Below, piece by piece: positions 43,573-64,000 of a stretch of 64,000 bases of DNA (the stretch's first letter is position 1; each line of letters opens with the position of its first letter). The position numbers and the translations under genes were made by a program. The DNA is from Opitutaceae bacterium EW11 (lineage in GTDB: Bacteria > Verrucomicrobiota > Verrucomicrobiia > Opitutales > Opitutaceae), in NCBI GenBank assembly GCA_003054665.1, contig QAYY01000014.1:1-64000 (forward strand), written 5' to 3'. Under the pieces are notes generated by a model. The model was not told the origin of the DNA and did no database searches. It saw only the letters and a program-made list of their open reading frames with translations.

Positions 43573-44270
43573 GGTAGAACGTTCGGAAGGCCTCCGCGGG
43601 CTCGGTCACGGTCCCTGGATTGGAACTGGGGAAGTAACGAGCTGTACGCGGTTTCCCCGGCAACTAACCTGCACGAGGAGGTGAAGTTCAAATCTCCATT
43701 GGTCGCAGTGCCGCTGCGACTTTAGCGCTAGATTGCTCAGCTGGCCCGAGAGCAGTATCCCGGCTCCGGGTGAAGCAGGGGACAGATGAGTCACGCGCCT
43801 TGAAGCAGTTCCGCGTGACTTATCCGCCCAGCCCCCAGGAGCCTCTGGCGCGACGTAAGTAGACATAATGTTTATTGTGCGATTAAGCCTCCGGGTGAAC
43901 GACTTCCGTTTCACCCATGGCTTCCAACATAAATGCATGTCGCATAACGGCGCAATTCTTGTGACAAAACGGGCGCAAATGTTGTGACGTTGTGCCGGAA
44001 ACGTCTTTGCGGAAGCCTGCTCGAACGCCGCAAGACCCGAGGAAGTAGCTCTCTGCCACCTGAACCAGCTGTACTCTGCTGGCTGCACCTTGGCGAGCGG
44101 CGGCCGCTCTTCAGGCAGATCCTGCGTAAATCCTGTGACATGCCATGGAGACGGTTGGCTTGCGCGCGGCCTAAACACCCGATTCTGCGCGACTGTCGGA
44201 GCGCCTGCTAGTGCGCACTCTGGTTCGGCCCAGCAATCGGTGCACGGGCATCATTTCATTCATTCGGACG
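43573..44270. other. intergenic region upstream of GH115 and duplicated unit
   Basis: About 700 bp lack a recognisable gene. Near 43702-43720 GTCGCAG/CTGCGAC forms a 7-bp hairpin that ends in the CTGCGACTTTAG string shared with the GT2 upstream region. At 43950 and 43973 two GCGCAA...TTGTGAC units recur at a 23-bp period. From about 43941 the sequence aligns with that at 55112, the start of the second copy of the duplicated unit. Confidence 0.45.
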
Positions 44271-44870
44271 ATGAAAATTGGGCTGCGGATCGGAGAAACT
44301 GGCGGACCGGACGGGTATTCTGCGCCACTCCCCCGTTTCGGCATCTATCGCATGGCAAAAAAATCTATGAAGAAAGCCGCATCAGGCACTAAGCTCGGGA
44401 GCCTCGTCAAAGATAGCATCACAGGATTCACGGGGATCGCGATCGGTCGCACGGAATTTGGGTTTGGATGTGTCCACATCCGCATCCAGGCACCGGGCCT
44501 GACCGAGGCGGGAACGCCAATTCCGGTGCAGACGTTTGATGATCAGCGTGTGGAGGTTCTCGCTCCTCCTTCAAAGCTGTGGGCCGAACCCGTCGAAACG
44601 CCCGTGAAGCTCGGCGACGTTGTGCGTGACTCCCTCACAGGCGTTGTGGGTGTCGCAACCGGAAAGACCGTCGGCCTGGATGGGCAGATCAACCTCTTTG
44701 TCGAACAAGTTGGGCTGACGGCAGACGGTGAGCCCAAGTCGCCGCTCTACATTAATGCGGCATCGGTAGTCGTGGTTGATAGGCGCGAACTCAAGGTGAG
44801 CAAGGACAGCGTCGCGACGAGCGGAGGCCCGATGCCACGCGAGATCGTTCCGCTTTCAGCTCCGCATTGA
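44271..44870 (+). CDS. tandem-domain phage-type hypothetical protein, copy 1
   Basis: The protein has 199 residues from the ATG at 44271, or 172 from the ATG at 44352. I prefer 44271 because it, and not 44352, is conserved in the paralogue at 55200 together with the downstream frame (YSAPLPxFG). The body is two related domains of about 55 residues: VKDSITGFTGIAIGRTEFGF with IRIQAPGLTEAGTPIPVQ, and VRDSLTGVVGVATGKTVGLD with LFVEQVGLTADGEPKSPLY. Each resembles the short phage-associated TGFxGIATxxxEYLxGC proteins of unknown function. No membrane or catalytic motifs are seen. Confidence 0.7.
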   Translation: MKIGLRIGETGGPDGYSAPLPRFGIYRMAKKSMKKAASGTKLGSLVKDSITGFTGIAIGRTEFGFGCVHIRIQAPGLTEAGTPIPVQTFDDQRVEVLAPPSKLWAEPVETPVKLGDVVRDSLTGVVGVATGKTVGLDGQINLFVEQVGLTADGEPKSPLYINAASVVVVDRRELKVSKDSVATSGGPMPREIVPLSAPH

Positions 44871-44907
44871 GTATCGCGGCGCGTATCGTCGGCGAGGGCG
44901 GTATTCG

Positions 44908-44939
44908 GGACCGTTTATAATTGATCTTTAAAACGGTCC
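44908..44939 (+). terminator. 3' hairpin of duplicated unit, copy 1
   Basis: GGACCGTTT (44908-44916) and AAACGGTCC (44931-44939) form a perfect 9-bp stem with an AT-rich loop, about 38 bp after the gene. The same element follows copy 2. It may be a terminator or a recombination landmark. It has no T-tract beyond the stem. Confidence 0.5.
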
Positions 44940-45049
44940 ATCTTTAGAGCTTGCAGCTACGGCGAAGACCGCTCGTGTGCTTCGATTTCGTGCCCCGAGC
45001 GTTTCAGATTGGCGGTTGCTTTCCGGCTACCTCCGTATCCGACGGTTGG

Positions 45050-51191: not shown

Positions 51192-52673
51192 ATGAATACT
51201 CACTGTTCACGCTTTAGCGGCTTGCTGGTAGTCGCCCTGTTCACGGGATGCGCGTCCACCGCCCGCAGACCCGCTGCTGTTGTTACGGAGGCCCCGCCGC
51301 GATGGCTGCACGCCATCGCGGCGGACGCCCCGGTCGCAGGGCCCAACTGGTGGGATAGCTTCGGAAGCGACGAGCTCCGACAGTTCGTGCGCCAAGCAGA
51401 CAGTCGGAATCTCGACCTAACGTCGGCCGTTGCCCGGGTTCGTCAGGCACAGGCGAATGCCATGATGGCCCGCGCTGGCCTGTTTCCGAGCTTGGTTGGC
51501 AGTGCCGGCGCTGAGCACCGGAATCTCCCCTCAGCGTCGTCGGTGGAGCGGGAGAACAACTACAGTGTGGCGCTCAATGCAAGTTACGAAATCGATTTCT
51601 GGGGCGGCAATCGTGCGGCCAGAGACAGCGCCCGGCATGCGCTGCGCGCGAGCCAGTTCGAACTGGAGACGGTGCGCATGACGGTCACGGCCGGGACCGC
51701 GTCTCTTTGGCTCCAAGCCGTCGGCCTTCGAGAGCGAGTCAGCTTGGCTGAAAAAAGCACGGCGAATGCGGAGCGCGTGCTGGGCATCGTCGAAGCCCGG
51801 GTAGCTTCGGGTGCGGCCACGAAGCTCGACCTCGCGCAGCAGCGCGGCCTTGTTGCGGCGCAACGACGGGCGGCGCTGGCCCTGCAGCAACAGTCTGATG
51901 AGGCAGTCATCGCCCTAGCCCGGCTGCTTGGTCAGCCGGTCTCGGAACTGTCTCTTCGCACCGCGTCGCTTCGTTCGCTGCGCGTTCCCTTACCTACGCC
52001 GGTTATGCCATCGGTGTTGCTCACCCGACGACCCGATATCGCCCGGGCAGAGGCGCAGCTCGCTGGTGCCGAGGCAGATGTGGCGAGCGCCCGCGCCGCG
52101 ATGTTCCCGCGATTGAATCTATCAGGGGGAGTGGGCGCGAGCGGCGGGCGCCTGCGGTCTCTCGTGGACAATCCGGCCTACAGCGTGGCCGCGGGGCTGA
52201 CGGCGCCGATCTTCAGCGCCGGCCGGTTGGTGGCCGGGAAGGAGCTGGCGCAGGCCCGGCGCGAGGAACTGCTCGTTGCCTATCGTGCCACTATTCTGTC
52301 GGCGTTCTCCGACGTGGAGACCGCGCTGAATGCAGTCGCAAGCCTCTCGGACCAGACGGCTTCGCAAGCGGAACAGCAGATGCAGGCCACGCGTGCCTTG
52401 GCGCTCGCAGAGATTCGTTATAGGGCGGGAGCTGAAACACTTCTTACCTTGCTCGAAGCGCAGCGCGCTGTCTATGCGGCGGAAGATGCCTGGGCACAAC
52501 TGCTGCTCGATCGCCTGCTTGCTTCCGTATCGCTTTACCGGGCGTTGGGCGGCGGCTGGACAGTTCCGACGACTCCAGCTGAATCCGGATCAAGCTACGT
52601 CCGTTCGCCAGCTCGGAAGCTAGCAGAGGGGGCTGACAAGGCCGCCTGCGCAAACCGACTAGATACGCGCTAA
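51192..52673 (+). CDS. NodT-family outer-membrane efflux lipoprotein
   Basis: The 493-residue protein has a lipoprotein signal (FSGLLVVALFTGCAS, lipid Cys about residue 17). Two OEP repeats with NodT signatures follow: WWDSFGSDELRQFVRQADSR and NLDLTSAVARVRQAQANAMM, RGLVAAQRRAALALQQQSDE, LLTRRPDIARAEAQLAGAEA and a C-terminal RYRAGAETLLTLLEAQRAVY. It provides the outer-membrane channel for MacAB and starts 7 bp after macB. The final 40 residues are a low-complexity tail. Confidence 0.93.
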   Translation: MNTHCSRFSGLLVVALFTGCASTARRPAAVVTEAPPRWLHAIAADAPVAGPNWWDSFGSDELRQFVRQADSRNLDLTSAVARVRQAQANAMMARAGLFPSLVGSAGAEHRNLPSASSVERENNYSVALNASYEIDFWGGNRAARDSARHALRASQFELETVRMTVTAGTASLWLQAVGLRERVSLAEKSTANAERVLGIVEARVASGAATKLDLAQQRGLVAAQRRAALALQQQSDEAVIALARLLGQPVSELSLRTASLRSLRVPLPTPVMPSVLLTRRPDIARAEAQLAGAEADVASARAAMFPRLNLSGGVGASGGRLRSLVDNPAYSVAAGLTAPIFSAGRLVAGKELAQARREELLVAYRATILSAFSDVETALNAVASLSDQTASQAEQQMQATRALALAEIRYRAGAETLLTLLEAQRAVYAAEDAWAQLLLDRLLASVSLYRALGGGWTVPTTPAESGSSYVRSPARKLAEGADKAACANRLDTR

Positions 52674-53373
52674 GCCGTCTACGACGTTACGAATCTTACA
52701 TGTAACAATTGATGCCGGCCCCCCGACGATCACTCGTCCTAAACGAGGTTCCTTTCCTATTTGGAATATACCACACCGGCAAAAATGGTGCGGATGACAG
52801 CACTTGCACCTGCACGACCTTTCGGTCCCAACGCTCTCAACGCTGGCCGTCTACTACCTCCGTCACATCCGCGTGAATACAAGTGGAGCTGAACACGGGA
52901 CTTGCACCCGTCGCCACTGCTCACCAATCAGGGCCCGCGTTATCTCGGAGTGATCAGGATAGAAATGGTCGGCCAGGATCGGGGATTACGCAGCTGATAC
53001 AGGCGTTCCCGGCAGCAATCAGGATCTACGTGGCGAGCCAGCCCGTGGACATGAGGAGTTGTTCAATGGGCTGTGGAGCGCGGCCTGCGAGCAGCTCCAG
53101 AATAATCCCGAGAGCGGTGCGGTGTTCTCCATTGTCAATGCGGAGCGCACGCGACTGAAGCTCTTATACTGGGATGGTGCAGGCGTGTGGGTGCTCGCGA
53201 AGCGCTTGGAACCGCGCCGCTTCTCCTAGCCAACGGTAACCGATGTCCGAAAAGCAGATTCCTGGAAGGAGACCTTAATGACCGCTCCGTGCCCGCAAAT
53301 GACCGTTCGGTGATTTCTAGGCGCGAACTCGCCGCAAAGTGGATCTTTGAGGCCCTCTACTTCGCGATACGCT
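52674..53373. other. gene-poor region with IS66 relic
   Basis: Besides the IS66 TnpB remnant at 52982-53229, this 700-bp stretch after nodT holds only short frames. GTTAC/GTAAC dyads occur near 52685-52704. I find no IS66 terminal repeats and no other transposase parts. Confidence 0.4.
52982..53229 (+). pseudogene. IS66 family TnpB (Orf2) remnant, frameshifted
   Basis: The first part reads ITQLIQAFPAAIRIYVASQP with VDMR, then the match continues in another frame as LFNGLWSAACEQLQNNPESG and RLKLLYWDGAGVWVLAKRLE to the stop at 53227-53229. IS66 TnpB normally has RIYLAxGPTDMRKSFDGL... LQxDPxSGxxFxF...KLLYWDGxGFWLxxKRLE. The shift lies close to 53057, consistent with one lost base. TnpA and TnpC are absent, so the element is dead. 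Confidence 0.8.
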
Positions 53374-53526
53374 ATGCAAACCCAACTCTCATTTGCCCTC
53401 AGGGGCCAAACCCTCTTCGAAGGCTGTCAAACCCGGTATGATCAGGCGCTTAACCACATGTCGATCATGGGGATTCTGCTGGTCGTGGCGTGTCCTAGGG
53501 CGGCTTCTTACCTCATTGGGCAATGA
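53374..53526 (+). CDS. possible small membrane ORF coupled to DUF535 gene
   Basis: A 50-codon frame starts MQTQLSFALRGQTLFEGCQT and ends with a hydrophobic segment (MSIMGILLVVAC) and ASYLIGQ. Its TGA overlaps the ATG of the DUF535 gene as ATGA. The overlap and membrane-like C-terminus are the only evidence. There is no clear ribosome-binding site and no known family. It may be a leader peptide or chance. Confidence 0.35.
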   Translation: MQTQLSFALRGQTLFEGCQTRYDQALNHMSIMGILLVVACPRAASYLIGQ

Positions 53527-54578
53527 GCACGAAACCAATCTCCCCGGTGGGACCGGCTCCGCTCGGTTCCTTAGCGCGGAAGTCTGCTTCGTCTGGGGGA
53601 CTGGGTTATAGCTTCCTCGGCTCTTTCTTCCTGAAGTATTCCAATGGCGAGCAGCCTAAATTGGTAGACCAAGTCAAGTACCTGCTCCGTATCCTTCTAC
53701 ACCCGGTCATCAGTTACCAGTGGATCACCTGCCTTTCTGAGCCGGGAACAAGGGACCTATGGGCGCTTAGGCCCAGACTAGCGACCAAGTTGCAGAGGCC
53801 GTACTTAGCGAAGACCTTAGGGGCACGGCGCCGCAAAGAAGCGCTGGTGAACCATTATCATCTGATTCGCGCGCTGATTTCTTACGAACGGCTCGTAGAA
53901 ATCTATGGCAAGGGTCATGTCCTGCTCTCGATTTACTCAAGAGAACACGATCGACGTTGGGATCTGCGCCTTGGGTATTTCAATGAACTGGAGAAAGAGG
54001 GTGAGCTAACAATCTCTTTAGTTGATACGCAGACAGCCCTCCGCATCGCGAATCTTACGTTTTGCCTGTACGTCGAGAATCAGAGCACGGTTGCCATGGT
54101 GGGGGGCTTGCAGTCAACAAGGCACGAAAACACGCGGCACGCCATTCGGGATACTTCGAAGCTCATGTTTGGGCTACGGCCTAAGGCAACGGTCCTTTGG
54201 ATGCTTCGAGAGATTTTGAATGCGTGGGGCGTTCAACAGTTGAAGGCGGTATCGGACAAGACCCACATCTATCAGCACTGGCGGAAACGAAAGCAGCTCG
54301 ATTTCAAGTATGATGAGTTCTGGGCTGAAGCAGGAGGTGTCATTGGAGCGGATGGCCTTTGGATCTTGCCGCTCCAGGAAGGGAAACGTTCGCGAGAGGA
54401 CCTAAAGCCGAACCGCCGGAAAACGCATGAATTACGCTACGCGTTCCTCGGACGCCTCAGGGAGGTTTCTCACGAGGCCATTGAACGCTTGCGCCCCAAC
54501 TTGGGCCAGCGTGCTGCATTAAGTGGCACGATTCTATCCATCGAGCTTTCCGAGCCGTCACAAAGCGTTCCACTGTAG
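53523..54578 (+). CDS. DUF535 (VirK/YbjX family) protein
   Basis: The 351-residue protein carries the family landmarks in order: KEALVNHYHLIRALISYERL (about 115-130), RRWDLRLGYFNELEKEGELT, STVAMVGGLQSTRHENTRHA, TSKLMFGLRPKATVLWMLRE, QQLKAVSDKTHIYQHW and DFKYDEFWAEAGGV. VirK/YbjX proteins are cytoplasmic or envelope-associated and linked to resistance to antimicrobial peptides in enterobacteria. The biochemical function is unknown. The gene stands alone in plastic DNA between an IS66 relic and the second duplicated unit and is lower in GC than its surroundings, suggesting transfer. The N-terminal 35 residues are not family-like, so a later start is possible. Confidence 0.85.
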   Translation: MSTKPISPVGPAPLGSLARKSASSGGLGYSFLGSFFLKYSNGEQPKLVDQVKYLLRILLHPVISYQWITCLSEPGTRDLWALRPRLATKLQRPYLAKTLGARRRKEALVNHYHLIRALISYERLVEIYGKGHVLLSIYSREHDRRWDLRLGYFNELEKEGELTISLVDTQTALRIANLTFCLYVENQSTVAMVGGLQSTRHENTRHAIRDTSKLMFGLRPKATVLWMLREILNAWGVQQLKAVSDKTHIYQHWRKRKQLDFKYDEFWAEAGGVIGADGLWILPLQEGKRSREDLKPNRRKTHELRYAFLGRLREVSHEAIERLRPNLGQRAALSGTILSIELSEPSQSVPL

Positions 54579-55199
54579 GAAATGGCCGCGAGCATTACTG
54601 CACACCCCTTCGGGCGCTGAAGCGGGCGGGCTATGATAGCATTTCGACTATGCCTCCTGCTGGATTTGAGAGCGTGCGCGAGTACTTGGGCTCCGCGCAG
54701 AATTCGGACAATAAAGTACGACATCCAGAACTGGCGCTCACCGGCAGAAACGGAGCTAAGCCCCATCTTCGTTAGAAGTCCCTATGGCTTAAGCTCTTGA
54801 GAAGCTTACAGAGCCACAGACCACTCTAATTCTTATGACAATGCCCCTCTGATTCTGATGACAAACAGACCAAATTTGATGACGCGGCATGCAGACTCAG
54901 TACTGAAACTGATGACATGTTCAGGAAATCTTGTTGGTCCTTCGAAATAAAGATCGCCCCGTCTCGAAGCAGTATTCCCACCACTCCGTCCGCGATATCG
55001 AACCCCGGCCCATATCTTGGAGGAGTTCTCTCGACGGAAATCGCGGAACGGATCCAGGGCGCTGGGAGTGCCCGTGTGACTTGGTTGTGGCGCGTCGTCA
55101 GGCACGCGGGCCGCATAGCGGCGCAATTGTCCTATGACACGCGACGGAGACGGTTGTCCTGCGTTCCGACATGAAAGCACGATTTCGTCCGTTCGGACG
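54579..55199. other. gene-poor region with spaced ATGAC repeats
   Basis: TCTNATGACA-like units occur at 54835, 54858, 54879 and 54912 (intervals 23, 21, 33) and again at 55134. Multiple subterminal repeats with a period near 22 bp resemble ends of IS21-type elements. A 41-codon frame (54650-54775) has no support. From 55112 the sequence aligns with copy 1 of the duplicated unit. Confidence 0.4.
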
Positions 55200-55787
55200 A
55201 TGCGCACTGGGACGCCAATCAGACAGACTTGTGGACGCCGGCGTTATTCTGCGCCGCTTCCCCTTTTCGGTTTCTCTCATATAGCAAGAACAACCACGAA
55301 GAAAGCTACCCCAGGGATTCAGCTGGGAAGTCTAGTCAAAGATAGCATCACGGGATTCAAAGGAATCGCGATTGCTCGTACCGAGTACGGGGTCGGATGT
55401 ATCCACATCCGCATCCAGGCACCGGGCCTGACCGACGCGGGAACGCCCATTCCGGTGCAGACGTTTGACGACCAGCGCGTAGAGGTTCTCTCCCCTCCGA
55501 CAAAGCGTTGGGCGGGCCCCATCGAAACTCCCGTAAAATTGGGCCATGTAGTCCGGGACTCACTTACGGGCGTTGTCGGTATCGTCACAGGCAAGACGGT
55601 GGGGCTGGATGGGCGCACTAATCTCCTTGTTGAACAAGCTGGAATGACATCAGACGGCGAGCCCAAGCCGCCAATCTACATTAATGCTGCGTCTGCAATC
55701 GTGATTGATCGACGCGAACTCGAGGTCAGTAAGGACAGCGTAGCCACGAGCGGAGGCCCGATGGCGCGGGCAGCCGTTGCCCATTGA
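55200..55787 (+). CDS. tandem-domain phage-type hypothetical protein, copy 2
   Basis: The 195-residue paralogue of the protein at 44271 starts at the ATG at 55200, embedded in the conserved TTCGGACGATG. The internal ATG used by a shorter reading of copy 1 is ATA here (HIARTTTKK against RMAKKSMKK). The two domains are conserved: LVKDSITGFKGIAIARTEYG with IRIQAPGLTDAGTPIPVQ, and VVRDSLTGVVGIVTGKTVGL with LVEQAGMTSDGEPKPPIY. Conservation of frame and domain, despite many DNA changes, indicates selection on the protein. Function unknown. The domain resembles short proteins found in phages. Confidence 0.7.
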   Translation: MRTGTPIRQTCGRRRYSAPLPLFGFSHIARTTTKKATPGIQLGSLVKDSITGFKGIAIARTEYGVGCIHIRIQAPGLTDAGTPIPVQTFDDQRVEVLSPPTKRWAGPIETPVKLGHVVRDSLTGVVGIVTGKTVGLDGRTNLLVEQAGMTSDGEPKPPIYINAASAIVIDRRELEVSKDSVATSGGPMARAAVAH

Positions 55788-55879
55788 GTTCGGCTCCAGA
55801 ACCGCTGCAGGCAGTCGATCGGTTCTGGCCCCGATTGACGCTCTTTCCGGTCTGTTGGTGCGTACCGACCCTCCCTTGA

Positions 55880-55909
55880 GGACCGTTTATAAGTGATATT
55901 TTAAACGGT
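55880..55909 (+). terminator. 3' hairpin of duplicated unit, copy 2
   Basis: GGACCGTTT (55880-55888) pairs with AAACGGT (55903-55909), leaving the same loop size class as copy 1. It lies about 92 bp beyond the gene stop. Confidence 0.45.
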
Positions 55910-56210
55910 GCATTCGGAAAATGCAGCTTCTGCCATGACCGCTCGTGCAGTTCGAGTTCATGCCCCCGTCCCGCAACCGGAAAACTCAGGCCGGCCGTGC
56001 ACTCCCATCGGGAACGAATTCCAAGTACCCAATTGGGAATGCGGCAACGTTCATTCAATTCCAGGGGCAGCGACAGGAGCAAAGATGTGAGCCCCTCCCG
56101 TGTGCCTGAGGTCGGAAAAGTTCTCGTAAAGGTGGGTTTTGAAGTGCTTCTCCCCTAACCTGTCACCCTGCGCAAGATGAGCAGCAGAGCTGCGATCAGG
56201 GGCTCGGTTC

Positions 56211-56238
56211 GCGGGTTCGAGTCCCGTCCATCCCGCCA
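56211..56238 (+). other. attL candidate: tRNA 3'-end block
   Basis: The 28-nt block is a T-arm (GCGGG, loop TTCGAGT, CCCGT), a 7-nt acceptor strand CCATCCC, discriminator G and CCA. It matches 63434-63461 at 27 of 28 positions. No 5' half of a tRNA with GGGATGG lies upstream, so this is a tRNA fragment left by integration rather than an intact gene. Confidence 0.75.
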
Positions 56239-56252
56239 TTTTGGCGATTTTT

Positions 56253-56290
56253 GCAAAAGGCCTGTTTCCCTCGCGGAACGGGCCTTTTGC
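56253..56290 (+). terminator. hairpin downstream of attL
   Basis: GCAAAAGGCC (56253-56262) and GGCCTTTTGC (56281-56290) form a perfect 10-bp stem, with a further TCC/GGA pairing inside the loop. The A-run and T-run flanks make it look like a bidirectional intrinsic terminator of the kind found after tRNA genes. Confidence 0.7.
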
Positions 56291-56376
56291 CTATGTATCT
56301 ACGACTTACGCGGGGTTCCACCGTTTGCACGATCGGTCACGATTGCGCTCCGTTGTGCACGATTAGCGGTTCTAGA

Positions 56377-56386
56377 AACCACCAAA
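56377..56386 (+). promoter_or_regulatory. candidate integrase arm-type site (left)
   Basis: AACCACCAAA occurs here, about 140 bp inside attL and 48 bp before the integrase ATG. Two tandem copies occur near the right end (63359-63378) in the same orientation. Paired repeats inside both ends of an island are the usual arrangement for arm-binding sites of tyrosine recombinases. Confidence 0.45.
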
Positions 56387-56433
56387 CGCGGCCATCAATT
56401 CGACGGCTTCGTTTATTGTTAGGAAGGGCTACG

Positions 56434-57763
56434 ATGATCACTATCACCGGGCCCCATTACGACAAAACGAGGAAGCGCTGGTACCTGTACTGGACCACGC
56501 CGCGGAAGAATCCCGACGGGACAATTCAGCTTCGGCCGAACGGCCGGCCTGTTCTCGATCGGCACCGTCCGCCTTACCCGACGCGCGCCGAAGCGGCAAC
56601 CGACAAAGCCCGCATCGAGGCTCAGTACGAGCAGACTGGCTCGGGCGAATTCCTCTTCGATCGCGCCGCTGCTGCCGATTACGAATCGGCCGCAAAGATC
56701 CTCGGCGAGGTACCGATGGTGGAGGCCGCTCGGTTCTGGCGCCTGCACCACCCAGAGCAGCCGAAACTCACGATGGCGCAGCTCTACCCGCTGTTTCTTG
56801 AGGCCCTCTTAAAGCGCTTCAAACGCGAGACGCGGCACACCCGTGATCTCAAATCGCGTGTTGGGATCTATGTGAAAACGGTAGCGAACCGCTATCCCGA
56901 GACCGTAACCCGCAAGGGAATCCTCCAGTACATCGAGGACCTGAAGGTGGAGCCTCGCACGGCTCGCAATCACAAGCAGTCGATCTGCCGGTTCTTCAAT
57001 TGGCTGGTTGGAAAAGACTACATCACGACGAATCCCGCAGGTGGAATCAAAAAGAGCGACCTCGCAGTTGGACCAGGTCGAGCGCTACCTTCGCTCTCTC
57101 GAACGGTACGACCCCGACTTGGTTCCCCACGAGATCGTGCAACTCCTGTCCGGGGTGCGTGCTGACGATGAAATGGCGAATTTTGACACGAAGTACGTGC
57201 TTTCTGAAACCAAGGGGATCGTAGTTCCCGGCAGCATCTCGAAGATGGGTGAGCGCGACGTCCTTGAAGGCGTGGAAGAATGCTTTTGGAACTGGTGGAC
57301 CGTGTACGGGAAGGACGAAGGGCTGCTGCGGGTCAAAAACTACGAACCGCGGTGGTTCCGGGTCCGCGTTCTCGCCTCAATTCTCGACCAAGCTCGGGCC
57401 GATGAATTCGCGCGGCTGCCAATCAAAAGCCTACTAAAAATGGACCTCGCCACGAAAGCGCTCGCCGACCGGCCATGGAACGCCCGCCGCCGCACGTTTT
57501 GTACGTATCACGTCGCAAAGCATCAGAGCGCCGACAAGACCGCGATGCTCATGCGTCACCAAGGCGGCACCGCAACTCTGTGGAAGTCCTACCGCGGGCT
57601 CGGCGTCACACAGGCGAAAGGCATGGCGTATTTCGAGATCCAGCCGTGCCCCGTCGCGCATCCAATCCGGCCGGAACGCCCCCTCCGCGGAATCGTCCGC
57701 AAACAGGCAGAGTATTCTCAGCCGATTTGCCGAATCGACATATCGGCGTCTGGATGCGCATAG
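56434..57763 (+). pseudogene. tyrosine recombinase/integrase, frameshifted
   Basis: The N-terminal part, from the ATG at 56434, reads a DNA-arm region (ITITGPHYDKTRKRWYLYWT) and a SAM-like core-binding domain (TRKGILQYIEDLKVEPRTAR with NHKQSICRFFNWLVGKDYIT, TTNPAGGIKKSDL). The catalytic domain continues in the +1 frame: LDQVERYLRSLERYDPDLVP, LLSGVRADDEMANF (likely catalytic Arg), RRRTFCTYHVAKHQ, MLMRHQGGTATLWKSYRGLG (His and nucleophile Tyr). The switch lies about 57045-57070, at the domain linker. One extra base or two missing bases would explain it. A CAAAAAG run is there but lacks a full A-AAA-AAG heptamer. It sits 195 bp inside attL, as expected for the island integrase. A sequencing error is possible. 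Confidence 0.85.
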
Positions 57764-57800
57764 CCCAAGTCGTGACCGACGACCTAGGCGAATATGGATG

Positions 57801-58148
57801 TTATCGGACGCCCGACCAGGGCGGCGTCGTTTGGCACGGCAATTCACCAAGCCGACGCGTGAGGTTATGCCGCAACACGTCTTCCAGTAGCTCTCTTGTG
57901 GTGCCGCGTGATACCGCTAAGGCAGTCGCCAGATGAGGCATATCGAGCGGATTTGCAGGACGTCCTTCCTTCGCGATAATGGGTATCGGGCCGAATAAGC
58001 GCTTCGATCGAAGGTCAGCACCAGCCCTTATCAAAACAGCCAGTACAGCCGCGACCGGAGTCCACTGAATCAGCGGCACGGGAGGTAAAACAAAATATAC
58101 GGATTTTTTGTTATCGGGTTGGGTGACGACGAACAAAGACCAGCCCAA
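57801..58148 (-). CDS. hypothetical protein, weak support
   Basis: A 115-codon frame with a TTG start has a plausible composition: SVYFVLPPVPLIQWTPVAAV, LAVLIRAGADLRSKRLFGPI, then LATALAVSRGTTRELLEDVL. GGGGAG lies 3 nt before the TTG, too close for an ideal site. I recognise no family. It lies between integrase and excisionase on the opposite strand, where a regulator would be usual, but no HTH is evident. Confidence 0.3.
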   Translation of the reverse strand: MGWSLFVVTQPDNKKSVYFVLPPVPLIQWTPVAAVLAVLIRAGADLRSKRLFGPIPIIAKEGRPANPLDMPHLATALAVSRGTTRELLEDVLRHNLTRRLGELPCQTTPPWSGVR

Positions 58149-58326
58149 GCGCTCCCCAATCGCCCCTCACGGCCCGCGTTCAGATGGCGTCAGCCCCGAG
58201 TCAACCACGCGTAGCGCGACGGAATCGGAAACGGCGTGTCAAACCGAGGACCGGCGGAAATCCACTAAGGAATTCCAGTAAGGTCTCTGGGATCGATGGC
58301 CCAAGCCAGACGATTGGCTGTATCGG

Positions 58327-58518
58327 ATGGATCTGTACGAAGCTGCAGCCTTCTTGCGCGTCTCACCTGCGACCGTAAGGCGTGCTGTACAGACCGATCG
58401 TGCGGGCCGTGCACAGCTATCTCACCAGCGGATCCTAAGTGCCTTCCGTTTTCGGCGATCGGATCTGGAGGTTTTCGGTTTAGTTCTGCCGCAGCACCAG
58501 ACGGGTCTCGACCACTAA
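58327..58518 (+). CDS. excisionase-like HTH protein
   Basis: The 63-residue protein has the layout of small MerR/excisionase-type DNA-binding proteins: MDLYEAAAFLRVSPATVRRA (helix-turn-helix, residues 1-20), then a basic wing-like part ending AFRFRRSDLEVFG. The pattern LtxxEAAxxLxVSxxTVRR ... RFRRxDLE is that of island recombination directionality factors. It lies about 560 bp after the integrase and inside the att boundaries. The expected Arg-Val wing segment is somewhat degenerate. Confidence 0.55.
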   Translation: MDLYEAAAFLRVSPATVRRAVQTDRAGRAQLSHQRILSAFRFRRSDLEVFGLVLPQHQTGLDH

Positions 58519-58543
58519 AGTCCAACCGGTTCTTCCTCTAACT

Positions 58544-59485
58544 TCACCGGATGCGCGCTGAAATGCGCAGAATTTCGTCAGTCTCCCGATGCTTCGACAG
58601 AGAAGTGAGAACACCCTCAAAAATTGCCTCGAAGCTGTTGGCTGCTATCCATTCCAACGGTCGGCCGTGATACTGTTCCCACAGTCGAACCCCTTGGAGA
58701 ACCAGAAGCCGGCAGTGACTGACTGGTTCCGGAGCGATTACCGTCAACGCATTCTTGATCCTTTCATCGGAGTCCGGATGCCTACTGTGAACCAGTGCCT
58801 TGTTGAGCATCAGCAAAGCACTGACCGCTACAGCCCCGCCGAACTGTCGCGTGAGTTGAATCTGGTTCGTCACCGGCGAAGTAAATCCATGCTCCCATGC
58901 CCAGCGGTCTGCTTGCCGCTCTTCGTCGATGAGTTGCCACCGAGGTTGAACTGCCGCAGAAACCTGGGTGTGGCCGCACGCCACGTGACCGATTTCGTGC
59001 AGTAATACGAAGTTGGCCGCGTAACAGAACACGGCGTTTACTTTTTCAACCAACGTCTGATCGGCGGCTACGCCAAAGACGGGGTTGGGTACGGCATCAG
59101 GCCATTCTGCGTATGCGGAAACGAGACTCATCGCATAATCGAACGCCTGACGCGCCTTCGTACGCACGGGCGAATCGTCTGAGCTGAGCAGCGTGTCGTA
59201 AAACGCAAGCAAGCTGTACGACATGCACCAGAGGTAACTCAGGAAGGTCTCAGAAAGTTGCACTTGATGCGTTCCATCGTGGACACAGGCCGCGCCGACT
59301 TTCCGAAGAGGCTGTTTGCCCTTAACTATTTCGATCCCCGGTTTGAGGCCGAACCTGGTAATTACATCACGCGCCGTCTGAACGAAGGCTGGATCGGACG
59401 CTTCAAGCGTGTGGACTAGATTGTTGCCCAGCACGGTGGCCAACTGATCTCCTTTTTGCAGCGTCCGGAAGTCGTAGTCGGGCAT
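58544..59485 (-). CDS. HEXXH metalloprotease, Lit-like (peptidase U49)
   Basis: The 313-residue protein has a zinc-protease core at residues about 165-205: FCYAANFVLLHEIGHVACGH (HEIGH) followed after about 22 residues by DEERQADRWAWEHG, whose Glu/Asp would be the third metal ligand. There is no signal peptide or membrane helix, so it is cytoplasmic. The HEIGHxxxGH...EExxAD arrangement and length match the Lit phage-exclusion peptidase family and some ImmA-like proteases. Lit cleaves EF-Tu when triggered by a phage protein. The target here is unknown. It is on the minus strand of the island, convergent with the excisionase-like gene. Abortive-infection function is inference from family and location. 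Confidence 0.65.
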   Translation of the reverse strand: MPDYDFRTLQKGDQLATVLGNNLVHTLEASDPAFVQTARDVITRFGLKPGIEIVKGKQPLRKVGAACVHDGTHQVQLSETFLSYLWCMSYSLLAFYDTLLSSDDSPVRTKARQAFDYAMSLVSAYAEWPDAVPNPVFGVAADQTLVEKVNAVFCYAANFVLLHEIGHVACGHTQVSAAVQPRWQLIDEERQADRWAWEHGFTSPVTNQIQLTRQFGGAVAVSALLMLNKALVHSRHPDSDERIKNALTVIAPEPVSHCRLLVLQGVRLWEQYHGRPLEWIAANSFEAIFEGVLTSLSKHRETDEILRISARIR

Positions 59486-60502
59486 AGCCGCGATACGCTA
59501 CACTCAGCCAAGCAGCATTCAACAGCGACAGGCGCAACAACGCTAGGATACCGACGCCGCCCAATCTCTGGTTGCGCACATGTAGGCGGCCGTTCGGGCG
59601 CGTATGACGAATGACTGGGAATAAAGCGAACCTGCAGACGACGATCGAGCGCTGGCGACGATTCAGGCCAAATTGTCACCTGTGCGGTTAACGTGCGCCG
59701 CCGACCGGAACGGAGTGCACCCGAACCCCTCTCTGCGCATGAGCCTGTTGGCGCTGTATTGAGCATCGGAAGCACCGGCAATCCGGCTCCGCGGGTTTTT
59801 GCATTTCGGGCCACTATCTCTCCCGTGATGAAACTCGAATTCACGGAAGAACAAAAAGCCTGGCTACGTGCCCGGCTTAATAATCCGGCGGACCAACTGG
59901 TCGTCGCCTTGGCTGTCTCGGTAGGTTGAGTTGGCCGGAAATCGCTCGTTATGCTGCGCGACGTGCCGGAAACGTCGCTCGTGTTCTGCGATCATCGAGT
60001 ACAGCATAGCATGGGGCCTGGGACATCCATAGTCCCACGGCACTTTTTCTAAACCCGAGTGGAGCGTGCTGCGGGTATTCTTATTGCTACGAGGCATCGC
60101 TACGTCCAAAACGCCTAGGAACGTTACCGATCTCTGTCGCGTGACGAAGGCCCCGCCAAGGTGAGTCGGCGCGGCCCGGCCTGCTCCTCGGAAAACAGGA
60201 TAACCCGACGCGATGACGCGCATTGGACCCCAGTGGGCGATTGATCACGCCTCCCCAGCTTTATGGGGTAAGTGGTAGCCCCGTGTTCTTCATCAACCAG
60301 TACAAATCGCCACTGGATTTCCTCGCTTTGCCGATACCGAGGATTGTCGGGATTGCGATTGAGTGTCACGTCAGACAGAAAGCGGTCGTGGTGACGCGTT
60401 TCAGTCTGCTATTGGCGCTGTTGCATCGGCACTTTCATGGTCCCGATGATCCGGCGGCGCCTTCCCTAGTGACGCTGCAAGTGTAACAAACACTCAACTA
60501 CA
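59486..60502. other. region with gene fragments
   Basis: About 1 kb between the metalloprotease and the AbiGi-like gene. It holds a 33-codon frame 59828-59929 (MKLEFTEEQKAWLRARLNNP, stops early) that looks like the start of a truncated gene, and a serine-protease-like fragment (60223-60486). The rest has no coding character I can support. Confidence 0.4.
60223..60486 (+). pseudogene. trypsin-like protease C-terminal fragment
   Basis: An 87-codon frame from a TTG carries PPQLYGVSGSPVFFI, the GxSGSP active-site motif of trypsin-like serine proteases, then LPRIVGIAIECHV-type strand order (PIPRIVGIAIECH) and a C-terminal VVVTRFSLLLALLHRHFHG. The His and Asp parts of the triad would lie upstream, where the frame is broken (in-frame TGA at 60214-60216). 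Probably the 3' remnant of a protease gene. Confidence 0.4.
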
Positions 60503-61138
60503 ATGCCGCAAGACGATCCGGGACGGCTAACTCTTTATACGAGGTCTGATCTTACTCCGTACCTTATCCACCTTACCAAGAATACCAAAAAGGCGGATTC
60601 GTTTTCGGCCTATCAGAATCTAGTGAGTATCCTGGAGAAAGGTGAAATCTGGGGTAGCAATACCAAGGGAGGATTCATTAAAGGTCCGAACCCCGCTGCG
60701 TGCTTCATGGATGTTCCTTTTACCGCGCTTAAGGTTCTACTAGACCGTGATAACGCTGACCCCGAATCTCCGCGGTATGAGGCGTACGGTGTCGTGGTGA
60801 CAAAAAAATACGCATACAAACGTGGCTGCCGCCCCGTGCTTTATCTTTCAGACGCGGAAATGGTCGGACTGAGAATTCCTGAAGATGAGAAGTGGCGCGT
60901 CGTTCGTTTTGAAGATACGAAGACGCGAAAGATCAGTTGGATTCACGAACGAGAATGGCGGTGCAAAGGCGCGTTCCGTGTGCCCGCCGAACCGCTGGCG
61001 GTGTTGGTTCAAACGACAAAGGATGCTGCTAAACTTACGGCTGCGATTGCAAAGAACCCAAATTGGAAATCACGACCGCTGTCAGTTATTCCCGTCGAAA
61101 TTATGTGCCAAGGTCTCCCGTACCTCACGGAGCAGTGA
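60503..61138 (+). CDS. AbiGi/DUF2971-like protein, candidate defence gene
   Basis: The 211-residue soluble protein reads LIHLTKNTKKADSFSAYQNL, VSILEKGEIWGSNTKGGFIK, PAACFMDVPFTALKVLL, then YEAYGVVVTKKYAYKRGCRP with VLYLSDAE, and ends with WIHEREWRCKGAFRVP. The order HLTK ... LxxILxxGxI ... CFxDxP ... YGxxxxKxYAxxxGxxPVLY is that of the AbiGi abortive-infection and DUF2971 group. A basic/Trp-rich REWR block resembles a nucleotide-binding or ADP-ribosyl-type fold, but this is speculative. It is first of three plus-strand genes, 27 bp before the HEAT-repeat gene. Confidence 0.55.
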   Translation: MPQDDPGRLTLYTRSDLTPYLIHLTKNTKKADSFSAYQNLVSILEKGEIWGSNTKGGFIKGPNPAACFMDVPFTALKVLLDRDNADPESPRYEAYGVVVTKKYAYKRGCRPVLYLSDAEMVGLRIPEDEKWRVVRFEDTKTRKISWIHEREWRCKGAFRVPAEPLAVLVQTTKDAAKLTAAIAKNPNWKSRPLSVIPVEIMCQGLPYLTEQ

Positions 61139-61165
61139 ACTTAGCCGATCGAATTGTCGCTAAGA

Positions 61166-62791
61166 ATGACAATGCTTTCTGATGATCGATTGAATGCCGT
61201 GGTCGCAAAGGCACGCGCCGACACCATCGGAGAATCAGATTTCCGCGCCGCTATTGAACAACCTTTTCAGACCTTACTTTCCTCGTGGGAGCTGTGGGTC
61301 TTGGTTGCGCTTCTGAGCCATGAGCGGCGGCAGAAGTGGGTCGGGTTTGTAGTTGAGTCGAAGCTGGGTGCCTCGGCACATGACCTCGGCACTTCTGGCG
61401 CACTCGGCCATCCCGAGGCCAGTGGTGACGACAAGCGCGTTCCGGATCTGCCGGAATGGACATACTACTTTCACGGTATTGGCTGTTGCTTGACTCACCA
61501 GGACGGCACAGTCCTGGACGTCGATTTCGGTCGGGATGGATCAGCACTTGAGATTGATCCGTACTTCTTTGGTCGGTTTCTGGAAACCGCACCCACACTC
61601 GATTGGAGTGACCGCCGACTTCGGCATGCGTCACCATTAGAAGACGCGTGGCTCTTTGATCTCGGCCGATTGAAAGCTCTCCGGCTGATTCATGGAAAAT
61701 GGCGAATCAGTCTGACAGAAGAGGGACGGACATTTGCTGAGCGCATTGAACCTGTGATCGATCAGGTCAATCGCCTCACAGCCGACGGATCGCCGCGCAG
61801 CCGATTTGTCGCCAGTTGGCTTGTCACAGTTTTGGGCGATACGCCCGGGGCAGTTGAGATCATCGATGTTGGATACCCGGAATTGACGGAGCTACTTCAG
61901 AAAGCAGCCGCCGAACGTTTCGAGTCTCGGGCGGGTGTTCTTCGACATGCATTTCGGTCCGGAGACGAAAATACTCAGAGAACAGCTCTGAAGGCGTTGG
62001 CCGCGCTCGGCCGCGAGTATGCGGAGACAGAAGTGCGGGGTGTCTTGGACCGGACGCCGGCGTCCTCCCTCCATTTGATCGCTATCCGGCTAGTCGAGAG
62101 TTGGCGCGATGCCGCCTGCGCCCCCGGCGTGATATCGGTCATCGAGCGTTTCACGTCGAAGCCGACATTCTTTCAACGAGTCTTCCGGAAGTTACCAGCC
62201 GACAGCTCTGAGACGGTACGCCCGCGCAATGGTCTGCTCGTCGCGGCGGCGAGAATTGCGTTCATATACAGCGAGCCGGAGATGCTGCCAGCGCGATGGC
62301 GAGCGGTTCTGCTGCGGGCACTCCAGGGCGATCGCGCAGGGTGTGATGCCGAAGCGGGATTGATGCTCTTCCTGTTGGATCCGATCCAGGGCATAGCGAA
62401 GCTCAAGGCTAACCTCCGAAACAGGGTTCCAATCACTCGTTCCGAATCCGCCATTTTCCTGGGGATGATAGGCACATCAGACGCCATGCGAATACTTGTG
62501 GAGAGCGCCGAAGGATCGCCCGACGATGGCGGCCATGAAGCGGCTTGCGTACTATCGCTGCTCGATCATCCGGCTGCGATCGCCGCCGCGGAACAGTGGA
62601 CCCGTCGGAACGACGGCTACGAAGAATCCGAGGGCCGCGATGTGACGATTGGCGGCCGCACCATCAAAACGTGGAAAATGGATGAAGTGAGGCGTGCGTC
62701 GATGCGGGAGCATATTCGCTATGGAATGGAGCGATTGAGAAGGGACTACGGCCTGCTGCTACTGCGGTGGAGCACGCCCCACGGAGGTTGA
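61166..62791 (+). CDS. DUF6896-HEAT-repeat protein
   Basis: The protein has 541 residues from the ATG at 61166. The frame is open from a TTG at 61154. An N-terminal domain has the DUF6896 hallmarks LPEWTYYFHGIGCCLTHQDG and VLDVDFGRDGSALEIDPYFF (residues about 90-135). A winged-helix-like part follows (about 165-205, KWRISLTEEGRTFAERIEPV). HEAT-like helical repeats fill about 210-500 (DENTQRTALKALAALGREYA; ITRSESAIFLGMIGTSDAMR, GGHEAACVLSLLDHPAAIAA). There is no catalytic motif. HEAT platforms in islands often act as sensors or scaffolds. DUF6896 is frequent among polymorphic-toxin immunity and island proteins. Co-oriented with its neighbours. Confidence 0.6.
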   Translation: MTMLSDDRLNAVVAKARADTIGESDFRAAIEQPFQTLLSSWELWVLVALLSHERRQKWVGFVVESKLGASAHDLGTSGALGHPEASGDDKRVPDLPEWTYYFHGIGCCLTHQDGTVLDVDFGRDGSALEIDPYFFGRFLETAPTLDWSDRRLRHASPLEDAWLFDLGRLKALRLIHGKWRISLTEEGRTFAERIEPVIDQVNRLTADGSPRSRFVASWLVTVLGDTPGAVEIIDVGYPELTELLQKAAAERFESRAGVLRHAFRSGDENTQRTALKALAALGREYAETEVRGVLDRTPASSLHLIAIRLVESWRDAACAPGVISVIERFTSKPTFFQRVFRKLPADSSETVRPRNGLLVAAARIAFIYSEPEMLPARWRAVLLRALQGDRAGCDAEAGLMLFLLDPIQGIAKLKANLRNRVPITRSESAIFLGMIGTSDAMRILVESAEGSPDDGGHEAACVLSLLDHPAAIAAAEQWTRRNDGYEESEGRDVTIGGRTIKTWKMDEVRRASMREHIRYGMERLRRDYGLLLLRWSTPHGG

Positions 62792-62843
62792 CAGAGCGGC
62801 AAATGCGTTCGCATCACACCATAAGTGAGTCGATACTGCCAAC

Positions 62844-63317
62844 GTGAGAACACTCGATCTGCTGTTCAAAAGAGCACGCGGGCAAGCAGCTCGAGAAGAC
62901 TACGTTGATTGGGCAACCGAGCTACTCGGCTCTGGCCGCGACGCACGAGCATTGATGAAGATCGCGGCGGATCCCGACATCGATGCTACTGAGCGTGACC
63001 GAGCTCTCGCCGAAGTGTTACCGGAACTTGGCTTCAGAATGCCGACTGACTCTCAGGATCTCATCGCGCTGCTTGAGGAGGAGTTGATCAAGGAATACTC
63101 AGATGGACTGATCTCTGGCATGGCCCTGATCCAGCGATGCTACGAGTTCTGGCGCCTGTCCGAGTATTCGCCGCGATTCCGACTTTGGCACGACCTCGGC
63201 GAGGACATTAGGCTGTCGGAAGAGGGCTACGGGCCGATTTTCTACGACCTGAGAATGGACGATCTGGAAGGCGGTATCCTGACTGTGCTACGAAAGGAGC
63301 ACCGCGTTCCAACATAA
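62844..63317 (+). CDS. hypothetical acidic helical protein (157 aa)
   Basis: The GTG-started protein of 157 residues is acidic and helical: RTLDLLFKRARGQAAREDYV, DWATELLGSGRDARALMKIA, DLIALLEEELIKEYSDGLIS, then YEFWRLSEYSPRFRLWHDLG and a C-terminal ILTVLRKEHRVPT. The size, charge and ALIQRCYEFWRLS segment are reminiscent of small immunity-type proteins, but I cannot name a family. It follows the HEAT-repeat gene by 52 bp and is the last gene inside the island. Confidence 0.55.
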   Translation: MRTLDLLFKRARGQAAREDYVDWATELLGSGRDARALMKIAADPDIDATERDRALAEVLPELGFRMPTDSQDLIALLEEELIKEYSDGLISGMALIQRCYEFWRLSEYSPRFRLWHDLGEDIRLSEEGYGPIFYDLRMDDLEGGILTVLRKEHRVPT

Positions 63318-63358
63318 CTGCCCAGTTCGTAGGCCGAAATCCATTTTCCTTCTTTCGA

Positions 63359-63378
63359 AACCACCAAAAACCACCAAA
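63359..63378 (+). promoter_or_regulatory. tandem candidate integrase arm-type sites (right)
   Basis: AACCACCAAA is repeated twice head to tail, 56 bp inside attR. The single copy near the left end (56377-56386) has the same orientation. Arm-site role is inferred from position and repetition. Confidence 0.45.
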
Positions 63379-63433
63379 TCGACGTCGCTCAGTTCCCTAC
63401 GAGGGAAGCAGACCTTGAAAAACGCCGAGCGGC

Positions 63434-63461
63434 GCGGGTTCGAGTCCCGTACATCCCGCCA
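63434..63461 (+). other. attR candidate: tRNA 3'-end block
   Basis: T-arm plus acceptor strand ACATCCC, G and CCA, 27/28 identical to the left block. Upstream, CGCCG-AG-CGGCG resembles the long variable arm of a type II (Ser/Leu) tRNA and CTTGAAA an anticodon loop of a Ser tRNA, but the anticodon stem does not pair, so no intact tRNA is present. Confidence 0.75.
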
Positions 63462-63465
63462 ATTT

Positions 63466-63501
63466 GAAAACCTGTTAACCCTTAAATGGTAGCGGGTTTT
63501 C
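63466..63501 (+). terminator. hairpin downstream of attR
   Basis: GAAAACC (63466-63472) and GGTTTTC (63495-63501) pair, extended by one mismatch then a G-C pair. It sits 4 bp after the tRNA CCA, as a native tRNA terminator would. Confidence 0.55.
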
Positions 63502-63631
63502 TGCTTCAAAAATCTGCGTAACTGGGCAACAAGCCCACCCCTGCGCATGGCTGTTCACCGACGTTCATGAGGCAAAGAAACGCACGGCCGGACACGATAT
63601 CACGACGATGATGGGTCAGGCGTCTGCCAGC
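63502..63631. other. short region right of the island
   Basis: No gene is seen between the attR hairpin and the stop of the partial minus-strand gene. A plus-strand frame from 63608 overlaps that gene in antisense and is ignored. Confidence 0.3.
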
Positions 63632-64000
63632 TTAAATTCGGGCGTCGAGGACGATCGACCGCACCACGGCCGGTGTCTCGGTTCCGTCATGTCGGCGCAC
63701 CAACTCAGCCAGTTCGTCGCGCGCAGCCACGACCGTTTTCGCCTTCATGCGCACCTTTCGCGTGTCGTTCGGATCGTTCCATTTTTTGCAGTCTGTCCAC
63801 ACGACCAAGTAGATCCCGTGCGTTTTCCCTGAACGTAGGAGGTAGTCGTCGACCAGTTGGTCTTGGTGCGCGGTCCGCACCTTCGGGTGCCAGCAACCCT
63901 TCACTTCGACGGAGATTTCCAAAGGCCGCACGTTCACAACATCGACGGCAACCGCCCGCACCTCGAAGTCGGTCCGCTTGTCCCACTGCACTTGCACTTC
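63632..64000 (-). CDS. C-terminal part of a PD-(D/E)XK nuclease-like protein (partial)
   Basis: At least 122 C-terminal residues are in the window, and the frame runs off the right edge, so the start lies outside. A GTG at 63997 is only an internal codon. The visible part has RPLEISVEVKGCWHPKVRTA (E-x-K core strand), HQDQLVDDYLLRSGKTHGIY and LVVWTDCKKWNDPNDTRKVR. An EVKGCW...QLVxxYLxxxxxxHGIYLVxW pattern is a restriction-endonuclease-like domain often found at the C-terminus of large island-encoded NTPase/HEAT proteins. It lies just outside attR, so it may belong to a neighbouring island. Role in defence is inferred. Confidence 0.55.
   Translation of the reverse strand, partial: EVQVQWDKRTDFEVRAVAVDVVNVRPLEISVEVKGCWHPKVRTAHQDQLVDDYLLRSGKTHGIYLVVWTDCKKWNDPNDTRKVRMKAKTVVAARDELAELVRRHDGTETPAVVRSIVLDARI

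What the first reader, a model, noticed from the sequence alone, without database searches (positions are those of the whole stretch)
56211..63461. 7.25-kb integrative island bounded by tRNA 3'-end repeats with uncharacterised cargo
A 28-nt T-arm/acceptor block (27/28 identical) lies at both ends. The integrase is directly inside the left end and a small excisionase-like gene follows. The remaining genes (HEXXH protease, AbiGi-like, DUF6896-HEAT, 157-aa acidic protein) have no housekeeping role and look like a conflict or defence cargo.
Basis: partly seen in the sequence, partly recalled or inferred. Interest (0 to 1): 0.68.

Follow-up and report, generated by a model that had tools for sequence, protein, structure and literature searches.

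The report
Decayed tRNA-Asp island with antiphage cargo
A small DNA element that once inserted itself next to an aspartate tRNA gene, and whose integrase is now broken, carries likely virus-defence genes into the chromosome of an Opitutaceae-type bacterium; the element is an ordinary kind, but one passenger gene looks like an unrecognised toxin-like enzyme.

Summary
The repeats are real (27/28 at 56211-56238 and 63434-63461, none expected by chance) and mark the two ends of an integrative element. They match the 3' end of tRNA-Asp(GTC). Integrase homologues in three other genomes of the family sit directly beside intact tRNA-Asp(GTC). A 12.9-kb element at an intact tRNA-Asp in another genus has near-identical ends (95% over 177 bp left, 80% over 180 bp right) but different contents. 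Arm-type repeats (AACCACCAAA) lie only at the two ends.

Corrections: neither block is part of an intact tRNA. The genome's only intact tRNA with this 3' end is on another contig, with no element beside it. The integrase is a pseudogene (32-nt frameshifting deletion). A related element carries a TrwC-type relaxase, so this is best read as a decayed mobilizable element.

Cargo: a Lit-family peptidase; an AbiGi-family protein with a confident ADP-ribosyltransferase (DarT-like) model; two patchy orphans (DUF6896-HEAT, 157 aa). Defence genes continue past the right end and the window (two STAND-like NTPases, a Schlafen AlbA protein, a SPARTA-like pair).

A new member of a known kind. Best lead: AbiGi, labelled "antitoxin" in Pfam, looks like a stand-alone ADP-ribosyltransferase effector.

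The parts
56211..56238 (+). left att block, 3' end of tRNA-Asp(GTC) (34-nt repeat 56210-56243)
   Evidence: identical to the intact tRNA-Asp on contig C3
56254..56289 (+). terminator-like hairpin carried by the element just inside the left att
   Evidence: sequence; equivalent hairpins in the left arms of L021, L047, L049, L050, L051
56377..56386 (+). arm-type repeat AACCACCAAA, left
   Evidence: only three copies in 95 kb of the contig, all at the element's ends; equivalent repeats in relatives
56434..57165 (+). integrase, N-terminal half (pseudogene part 1)
   Evidence: 52% identity to residues 3-217 of an intact 471-aa homologue; Phage_int_SAM_4 weak
57008..57763 (+). integrase, C-terminal catalytic half in another frame (pseudogene part 2)
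   Evidence: 57% identity to residues 215-447 of the homologue; 32-nt deletion between the halves
58327..58518 (+). excisionase-like HTH protein, 63 aa
   Evidence: HTH_17 1.7e-5; 57-64% identical homologues beside the integrase in L047 and L053
58544..59485 (-). Lit-family (Peptidase U49) metallopeptidase, HEIGH motif
   Evidence: Pfam 1.5e-11, PADLOC Lit 3.3e-22, NCBIfam PRK09672 9.7e-29 but below its cut-off
60503..61138 (+). AbiGi-family protein, predicted ADP-ribosyltransferase fold
   Evidence: 30 of 57 aligned relatives match Pfam AbiGi; model pLDDT 88, best structural matches DarT
61178..62791 (+). DUF6896-HEAT protein, 537 aa (ORF listing start at 61154)
   Evidence: DUF6896 4.7e-16, HEAT_2 2.3e-5; found in 1 other of 150 family genomes and weakly in 1 other of 288 phylum genomes
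62844..63317 (+). 157-aa orphan protein
   Evidence: no family; 2 distant relatives in 288 phylum genomes
63359..63378 (+). paired arm-type repeats AACCACCAAA x2, right
   Evidence: same position as in the right arms of four other scars/elements
63434..63461 (+). right att block, 3' end of tRNA-Asp(GTC), one mismatch

Best explanation
Window 56211-63461 is a decayed, probably formerly mobilizable, integrative element of an Opitutaceae family that recombines at the 3' end of tRNA-Asp(GTC). A divergent tyrosine recombinase with paired about 11-bp arm sites near each end, helped by a small HTH excisionase, joined a circular element carrying a copy of the tRNA 3' end to a chromosomal copy of that 3' end, leaving the two direct repeats and supplying a terminator after the left one. 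Here the integrase is dead and the target was a bare tRNA-Asp 3' fragment, not an intact gene, most likely a scar of an earlier event (inferred). The cargo most likely acts by abortive infection: a Lit-type protease that would cut a translation factor when triggered by a phage product (inferred from Lit), and an AbiGi protein that would ADP-ribosylate a cellular or phage target (inferred from fold). The DUF6896-HEAT and 157-aa genes probably sense or regulate, or are separate accessory genes (weak inference).
For: Repeats exact and not chance. Integrase homologues beside intact tRNA-Asp(GTC) in G070, G058 and G097. G006 element at an intact tRNA-Asp with the same ends and different interior. 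Arm repeats only at the ends, conserved in layout. Xis homologues beside integrase in two genomes. TrwC relaxase in the G058 element. No integrase relative in phage, plasmid or viral collections. 32-nt deletion in the integrase. Lit and AbiGi assignments and ART fold. Low G+C against the flank. Cargo patchy.
Against: No intact tRNA at the locus and no empty site seen, so the integration event here is inferred, not observed. The sequence left of 56211 is neither a decayed tRNA-Asp nor a recognisable right arm of another element. No relaxase or transfer gene in this element. No defence activity shown for any gene; two cargo genes are unassigned. The Xis-like gene is oriented differently from its homologues.
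Confidence: 0.8

Rival explanations
1. The right repeat is the junction with a second, larger element of the same family, so the small island is one unit of a tandem array of tRNA-Asp elements that includes the STAND/Schlafen/SPARTA block.
For: Defence genes continue without a break from 63632 to about 77.9 kb and end at another tyrosine recombinase. In G161 an integrase-end block without tRNA is preceded by a right arm with paired repeats while an intact tRNA-Asp elsewhere carries a similar left arm, which fits tandem accretion; accretion and CIMEs are described for IMEs (PMC5704250).
Against: No third att copy right of 63461 in the genome; the recombinase at 76891 is of a different family; the left flank has no paired arm repeats; no tRNA-Asp on this contig stretch.
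Confidence: 0.3
2. A second tRNA-Asp gene once stood here; the element inserted normally and the 5' half of the tRNA was later lost.
For: The left end is the integrase-proximal end, which in relatives is fused to the intact tRNA; another intact tRNA-Asp exists, so loss would be tolerated.
Against: No trace of the 5' half upstream (local alignment no better than random windows, P=0.51); relatives carry one intact copy each among those examined.
Confidence: 0.25
3. A prophage or phage satellite remnant.
For: Integrase, excisionase and defence cargo next to a tRNA sequence is also satellite-like; Lit is prophage-borne in E. coli e14 (PMC3014915).
Against: No phage structural or packaging gene; the integrase is not found in 50,697 phage records, plasmids or IMG/VR; a relative carries a TrwC relaxase.
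Confidence: 0.05

Closest known systems
Integrative and mobilizable elements / CIMEs (cis-mobilizable elements) at tRNA 3' ends
   Same: Flanked by direct repeats of a tRNA 3' end, integrase next to one end, Xis-like gene, accessory cargo; decay to an element that keeps att sites but lacks a working integrase.
   Different: No relaxase in this copy; both att blocks lie away from an intact tRNA; the integrase family has almost no Pfam match.
Lit (T4 exclusion, e14)
   Same: Peptidase U49/Lit match over most of the protein, HEXXH motif.
   Different: Scores below the NCBIfam equivalog cut-off (100 vs 274 bits); substrate and trigger unknown; not prophage-borne.
AbiG (AbiGi component)
   Same: Family match at borderline score for this protein, supported by relatives.
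   Different: No AbiGii neighbour; mostly a single gene in 80 relatives' loci (47 without a close same-strand neighbour).
DarT ADP-ribosyltransferase
   Same: Predicted fold; best solved matches are DarT (Z 8.8).
   Different: No sequence-profile similarity to a family DarT; no conserved antitoxin partner gene.

Membership tests
tRNA-targeting integrative element | direct repeats of a tRNA 3' end at both ends | tested here: met
tRNA-targeting integrative element | intact tRNA at one end | tested here: not met
   only fragments at both ends
tRNA-targeting integrative element | integrase family associated with that tRNA | tested here: met
   three homologues beside tRNA-Asp(GTC)
tRNA-targeting integrative element | empty site in a related strain | not tested
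   no congeneric genome among those searched
Autonomous integrative element | intact integrase | tested here: not met
   32-nt frameshifting deletion
IME | mobilization gene (relaxase) | tested here: not met
   none among the element's genes; present in the G058 relative
CIME | att sites kept, integration and transfer genes lost | tested here: met
Lit | Peptidase U49 domain with HEXXH | tested here: met
   HEIGH in the translation
Lit | NCBIfam equivalog cut-off | tested here: not met
   100.5 vs 274 bits
Lit | EF-Tu cleavage on a phage trigger | not testable with these tools
   needs biochemistry
AbiGi (PF10899) | score over the gathering cut-off | tested here: inconclusive
   21.3 vs 22.4 bits for this protein; 30 of 57 relatives match at E up to 0.1
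AbiG system | AbiGii partner | tested here: not met
   no such neighbour in the element
ADP-ribosyltransferase superfamily | ART fold | tested here: met
   predicted model only
DarT | sequence-profile match and DarG partner | tested here: not met

The most novel reading that the evidence does not exclude
The AbiGi family, labelled an antitoxin in Pfam, is a large stand-alone family of DarT-like ADP-ribosyltransferase effectors that spread on mobile elements and act alone in abortive infection.
Probability: 0.45. Interest if true: 0.6.

Novelty: new member of a known kind. Interest (0 to 1): 0.36.

Why it matters
It adds a well-documented example of a tRNA-Asp element family in the Opitutaceae group, with recognisable ends, a recombinase family nearly invisible to Pfam, and exchangeable cargo. 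If the AbiGi fold assignment is right, it gives a direct and testable enzymatic hypothesis for a widespread abortive-infection family whose mechanism is unknown and which carries the label 'antitoxin'.

Tried and rejected
Decayed tRNA-Asp body left of the left block: not supported. Right arm of another element left of the left block: no paired repeats (best 7/9, reached in 30% of random windows). Phage or plasmid origin of the integrase: no relatives found. The HEAT protein: no relatives in genome contigs, plasmids or viral contigs, and its single-sequence model is useless (pLDDT 40). Lit-like protein in viral contigs: none. Conserved partner of the AbiGi-like gene: none, apart from an AAA_13 ATPase near it in six loci. 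tRNA-Leu at 52786-52872 as island boundary: it has no match in 79 relatives at E 1e-15 and no flanking repeat. Rfam: nothing in 52000-64000.

Full report
Setting. The window is the first 64 kb of contig C6 (157,151 bp) of a 6.4-Mb genome in 45 contigs. Its order-level relatives and a 73%-identical AbiGi homologue in an Opitutaceae MAG place it in or near Opitutaceae (inference). Core genes up to about 52.7 kb have about 65% G+C; the region from there rightwards has 52-60%.

The repeats. Two 28-nt blocks, 27/28 identical, lie at 56211-56238 and 63434-63461; shuffled sequence gives none. They equal the 3' end of tRNA-Asp(GTC). In the whole genome the pattern occurs three times: the two blocks and the intact tRNA-Asp on C3:570016. 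That tRNA has its own terminator and I see no element beside it. ARAGORN finds no tRNA at either block.

It is a real element. Integrase homologues (49-57% identity over the C half) were found in a minority of family genomes, and in G070, G058 and G097 an intact tRNA-Asp(GTC) lies immediately beside them. In G006 an intact tRNA-Asp is followed by a 12.87-kb stretch ending in the same 3'-end repeat; its left end is 95% identical over 177 bp to window 56209-56385 and its right end 80% over 180 bp to 63332-63505, while the interior differs. The shared ends therefore define the element. Inside the ends are arm-type repeats: AACCACCAAA occurs three times in 95 kb of this contig, at 56377, 63359 and 63369. 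Relatives have paired repeats of other sequence but the same 11-bp spacing in the left arm and 70-81 nt before the core in the right arm.

It is broken. The integrase halves are in different frames. Between two conserved motifs there are 46 nt here and 78 nt in each of four homologues, a 32-nt difference, so a frameshifting deletion and not a homopolymer error. The HTH gene has homologues convergent with the integrase in L047 and L053 but is co-directional here, which suggests rearrangement. About 1 kb between the Lit-like and AbiGi-like genes has no recognisable gene.

Where it sits. The left block, which in relatives is the end fused to the intact tRNA, is here fused to other DNA. That DNA is neither a decayed tRNA-Asp nor an arm of a known element, and has no close match in 94 relatives. 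Similar orphan scars exist elsewhere: G058 has tRNA-Asp plus integrase at 1,421,182 and a right-arm scar at 1,052,846 in the same orientation, 368 kb away; in G161 an integrase-end block is preceded by another element's right arm. I infer a history of accretion, decay and rearrangement, as described for IMEs and CIMEs (PMC5704250). The details at this locus remain unexplained.

Type. The G058 relative carries a TrwC relaxase. No integrase relative was found in phage, plasmid or viral collections. I therefore read the window's element as a decayed mobilizable element, functionally a CIME, rather than a prophage.

Cargo. 58544-59485 is Lit/Peptidase U49 family. Lit of e14 cleaves EF-Tu when T4 Gol is made (PMC3014915); the same action here is inference. 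60503-61138 is AbiGi family. A 57-sequence alignment gave a model with pLDDT 88; solved structures closest to it are DarT (Foldseek 8e-4; Z 8.8), followed by Tpt1 and other ADP-ribosyltransferases. Invariant residues include H23 and the HEREWR motif at 148-153, which would suit an H-Y-E type active site (inference). Profile comparison with one family DarT found nothing, so it is not filed as DarT. The family is widespread (194 tblastn-confirmed stretches) and usually a single gene. 61178-62791 (DUF6896-HEAT) and 62844-63317 (157 aa) follow closely on the same strand and may form an operon with it; their relatives are rare and not found together.

Neighbourhood. Right of the element, outside the window, lie two large STAND-like NTPase genes, a Schlafen AlbA_2 protein, a short pAgo and a TIR protein with APAZ-like matches (a SPARTA-like pair; PMC11156904 describes SPARTA) and a tyrosine recombinase.

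Verdict. It is an ordinary kind of element in good company; the AbiGi fold is the point worth following.

Noticed in passing
G000:C6:63632-77871 (L007): Second defence block directly right of the element: two STAND-like NTPase genes, Schlafen AlbA_2 protein, short pAgo plus TIR/APAZ-like protein (SPARTA-like), and a tyrosine recombinase; only its first 370 bp are in the window.
   Followed up: partly
L047 and L166 (G058:C1:1421182 and 1052846): In another genome the tRNA-Asp with integrase and an orphan right-arm att scar lie 368 kb apart in the same orientation: either a giant element or a rearrangement.
   Followed up: partly
window 44211-44996 and 55134-55967: Paralogous genes with similar start and downstream sequence (78% over 89 bp downstream), one just left of the element.
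   Followed up: no
window 52786-52872: Predicted tRNA-Leu(gag) with no similar sequence in 79 relatives, at the G+C step; possibly foreign or a false prediction.
   Followed up: partly
L064, L067: Distant relatives of the AbiGi-like and 157-aa genes sit among many small ORFs with repeated intergenic sequence, resembling integron cassette arrays.
   Followed up: no
L068, L069-L072, L083: AbiGi-like genes of the close clade lie near an AAA_13 ATPase gene in six loci.
   Followed up: partly
L047:9902-15055: A 1717-aa methyltransferase-helicase protein next to the TrwC relaxase in the related G058 element.
   Followed up: no
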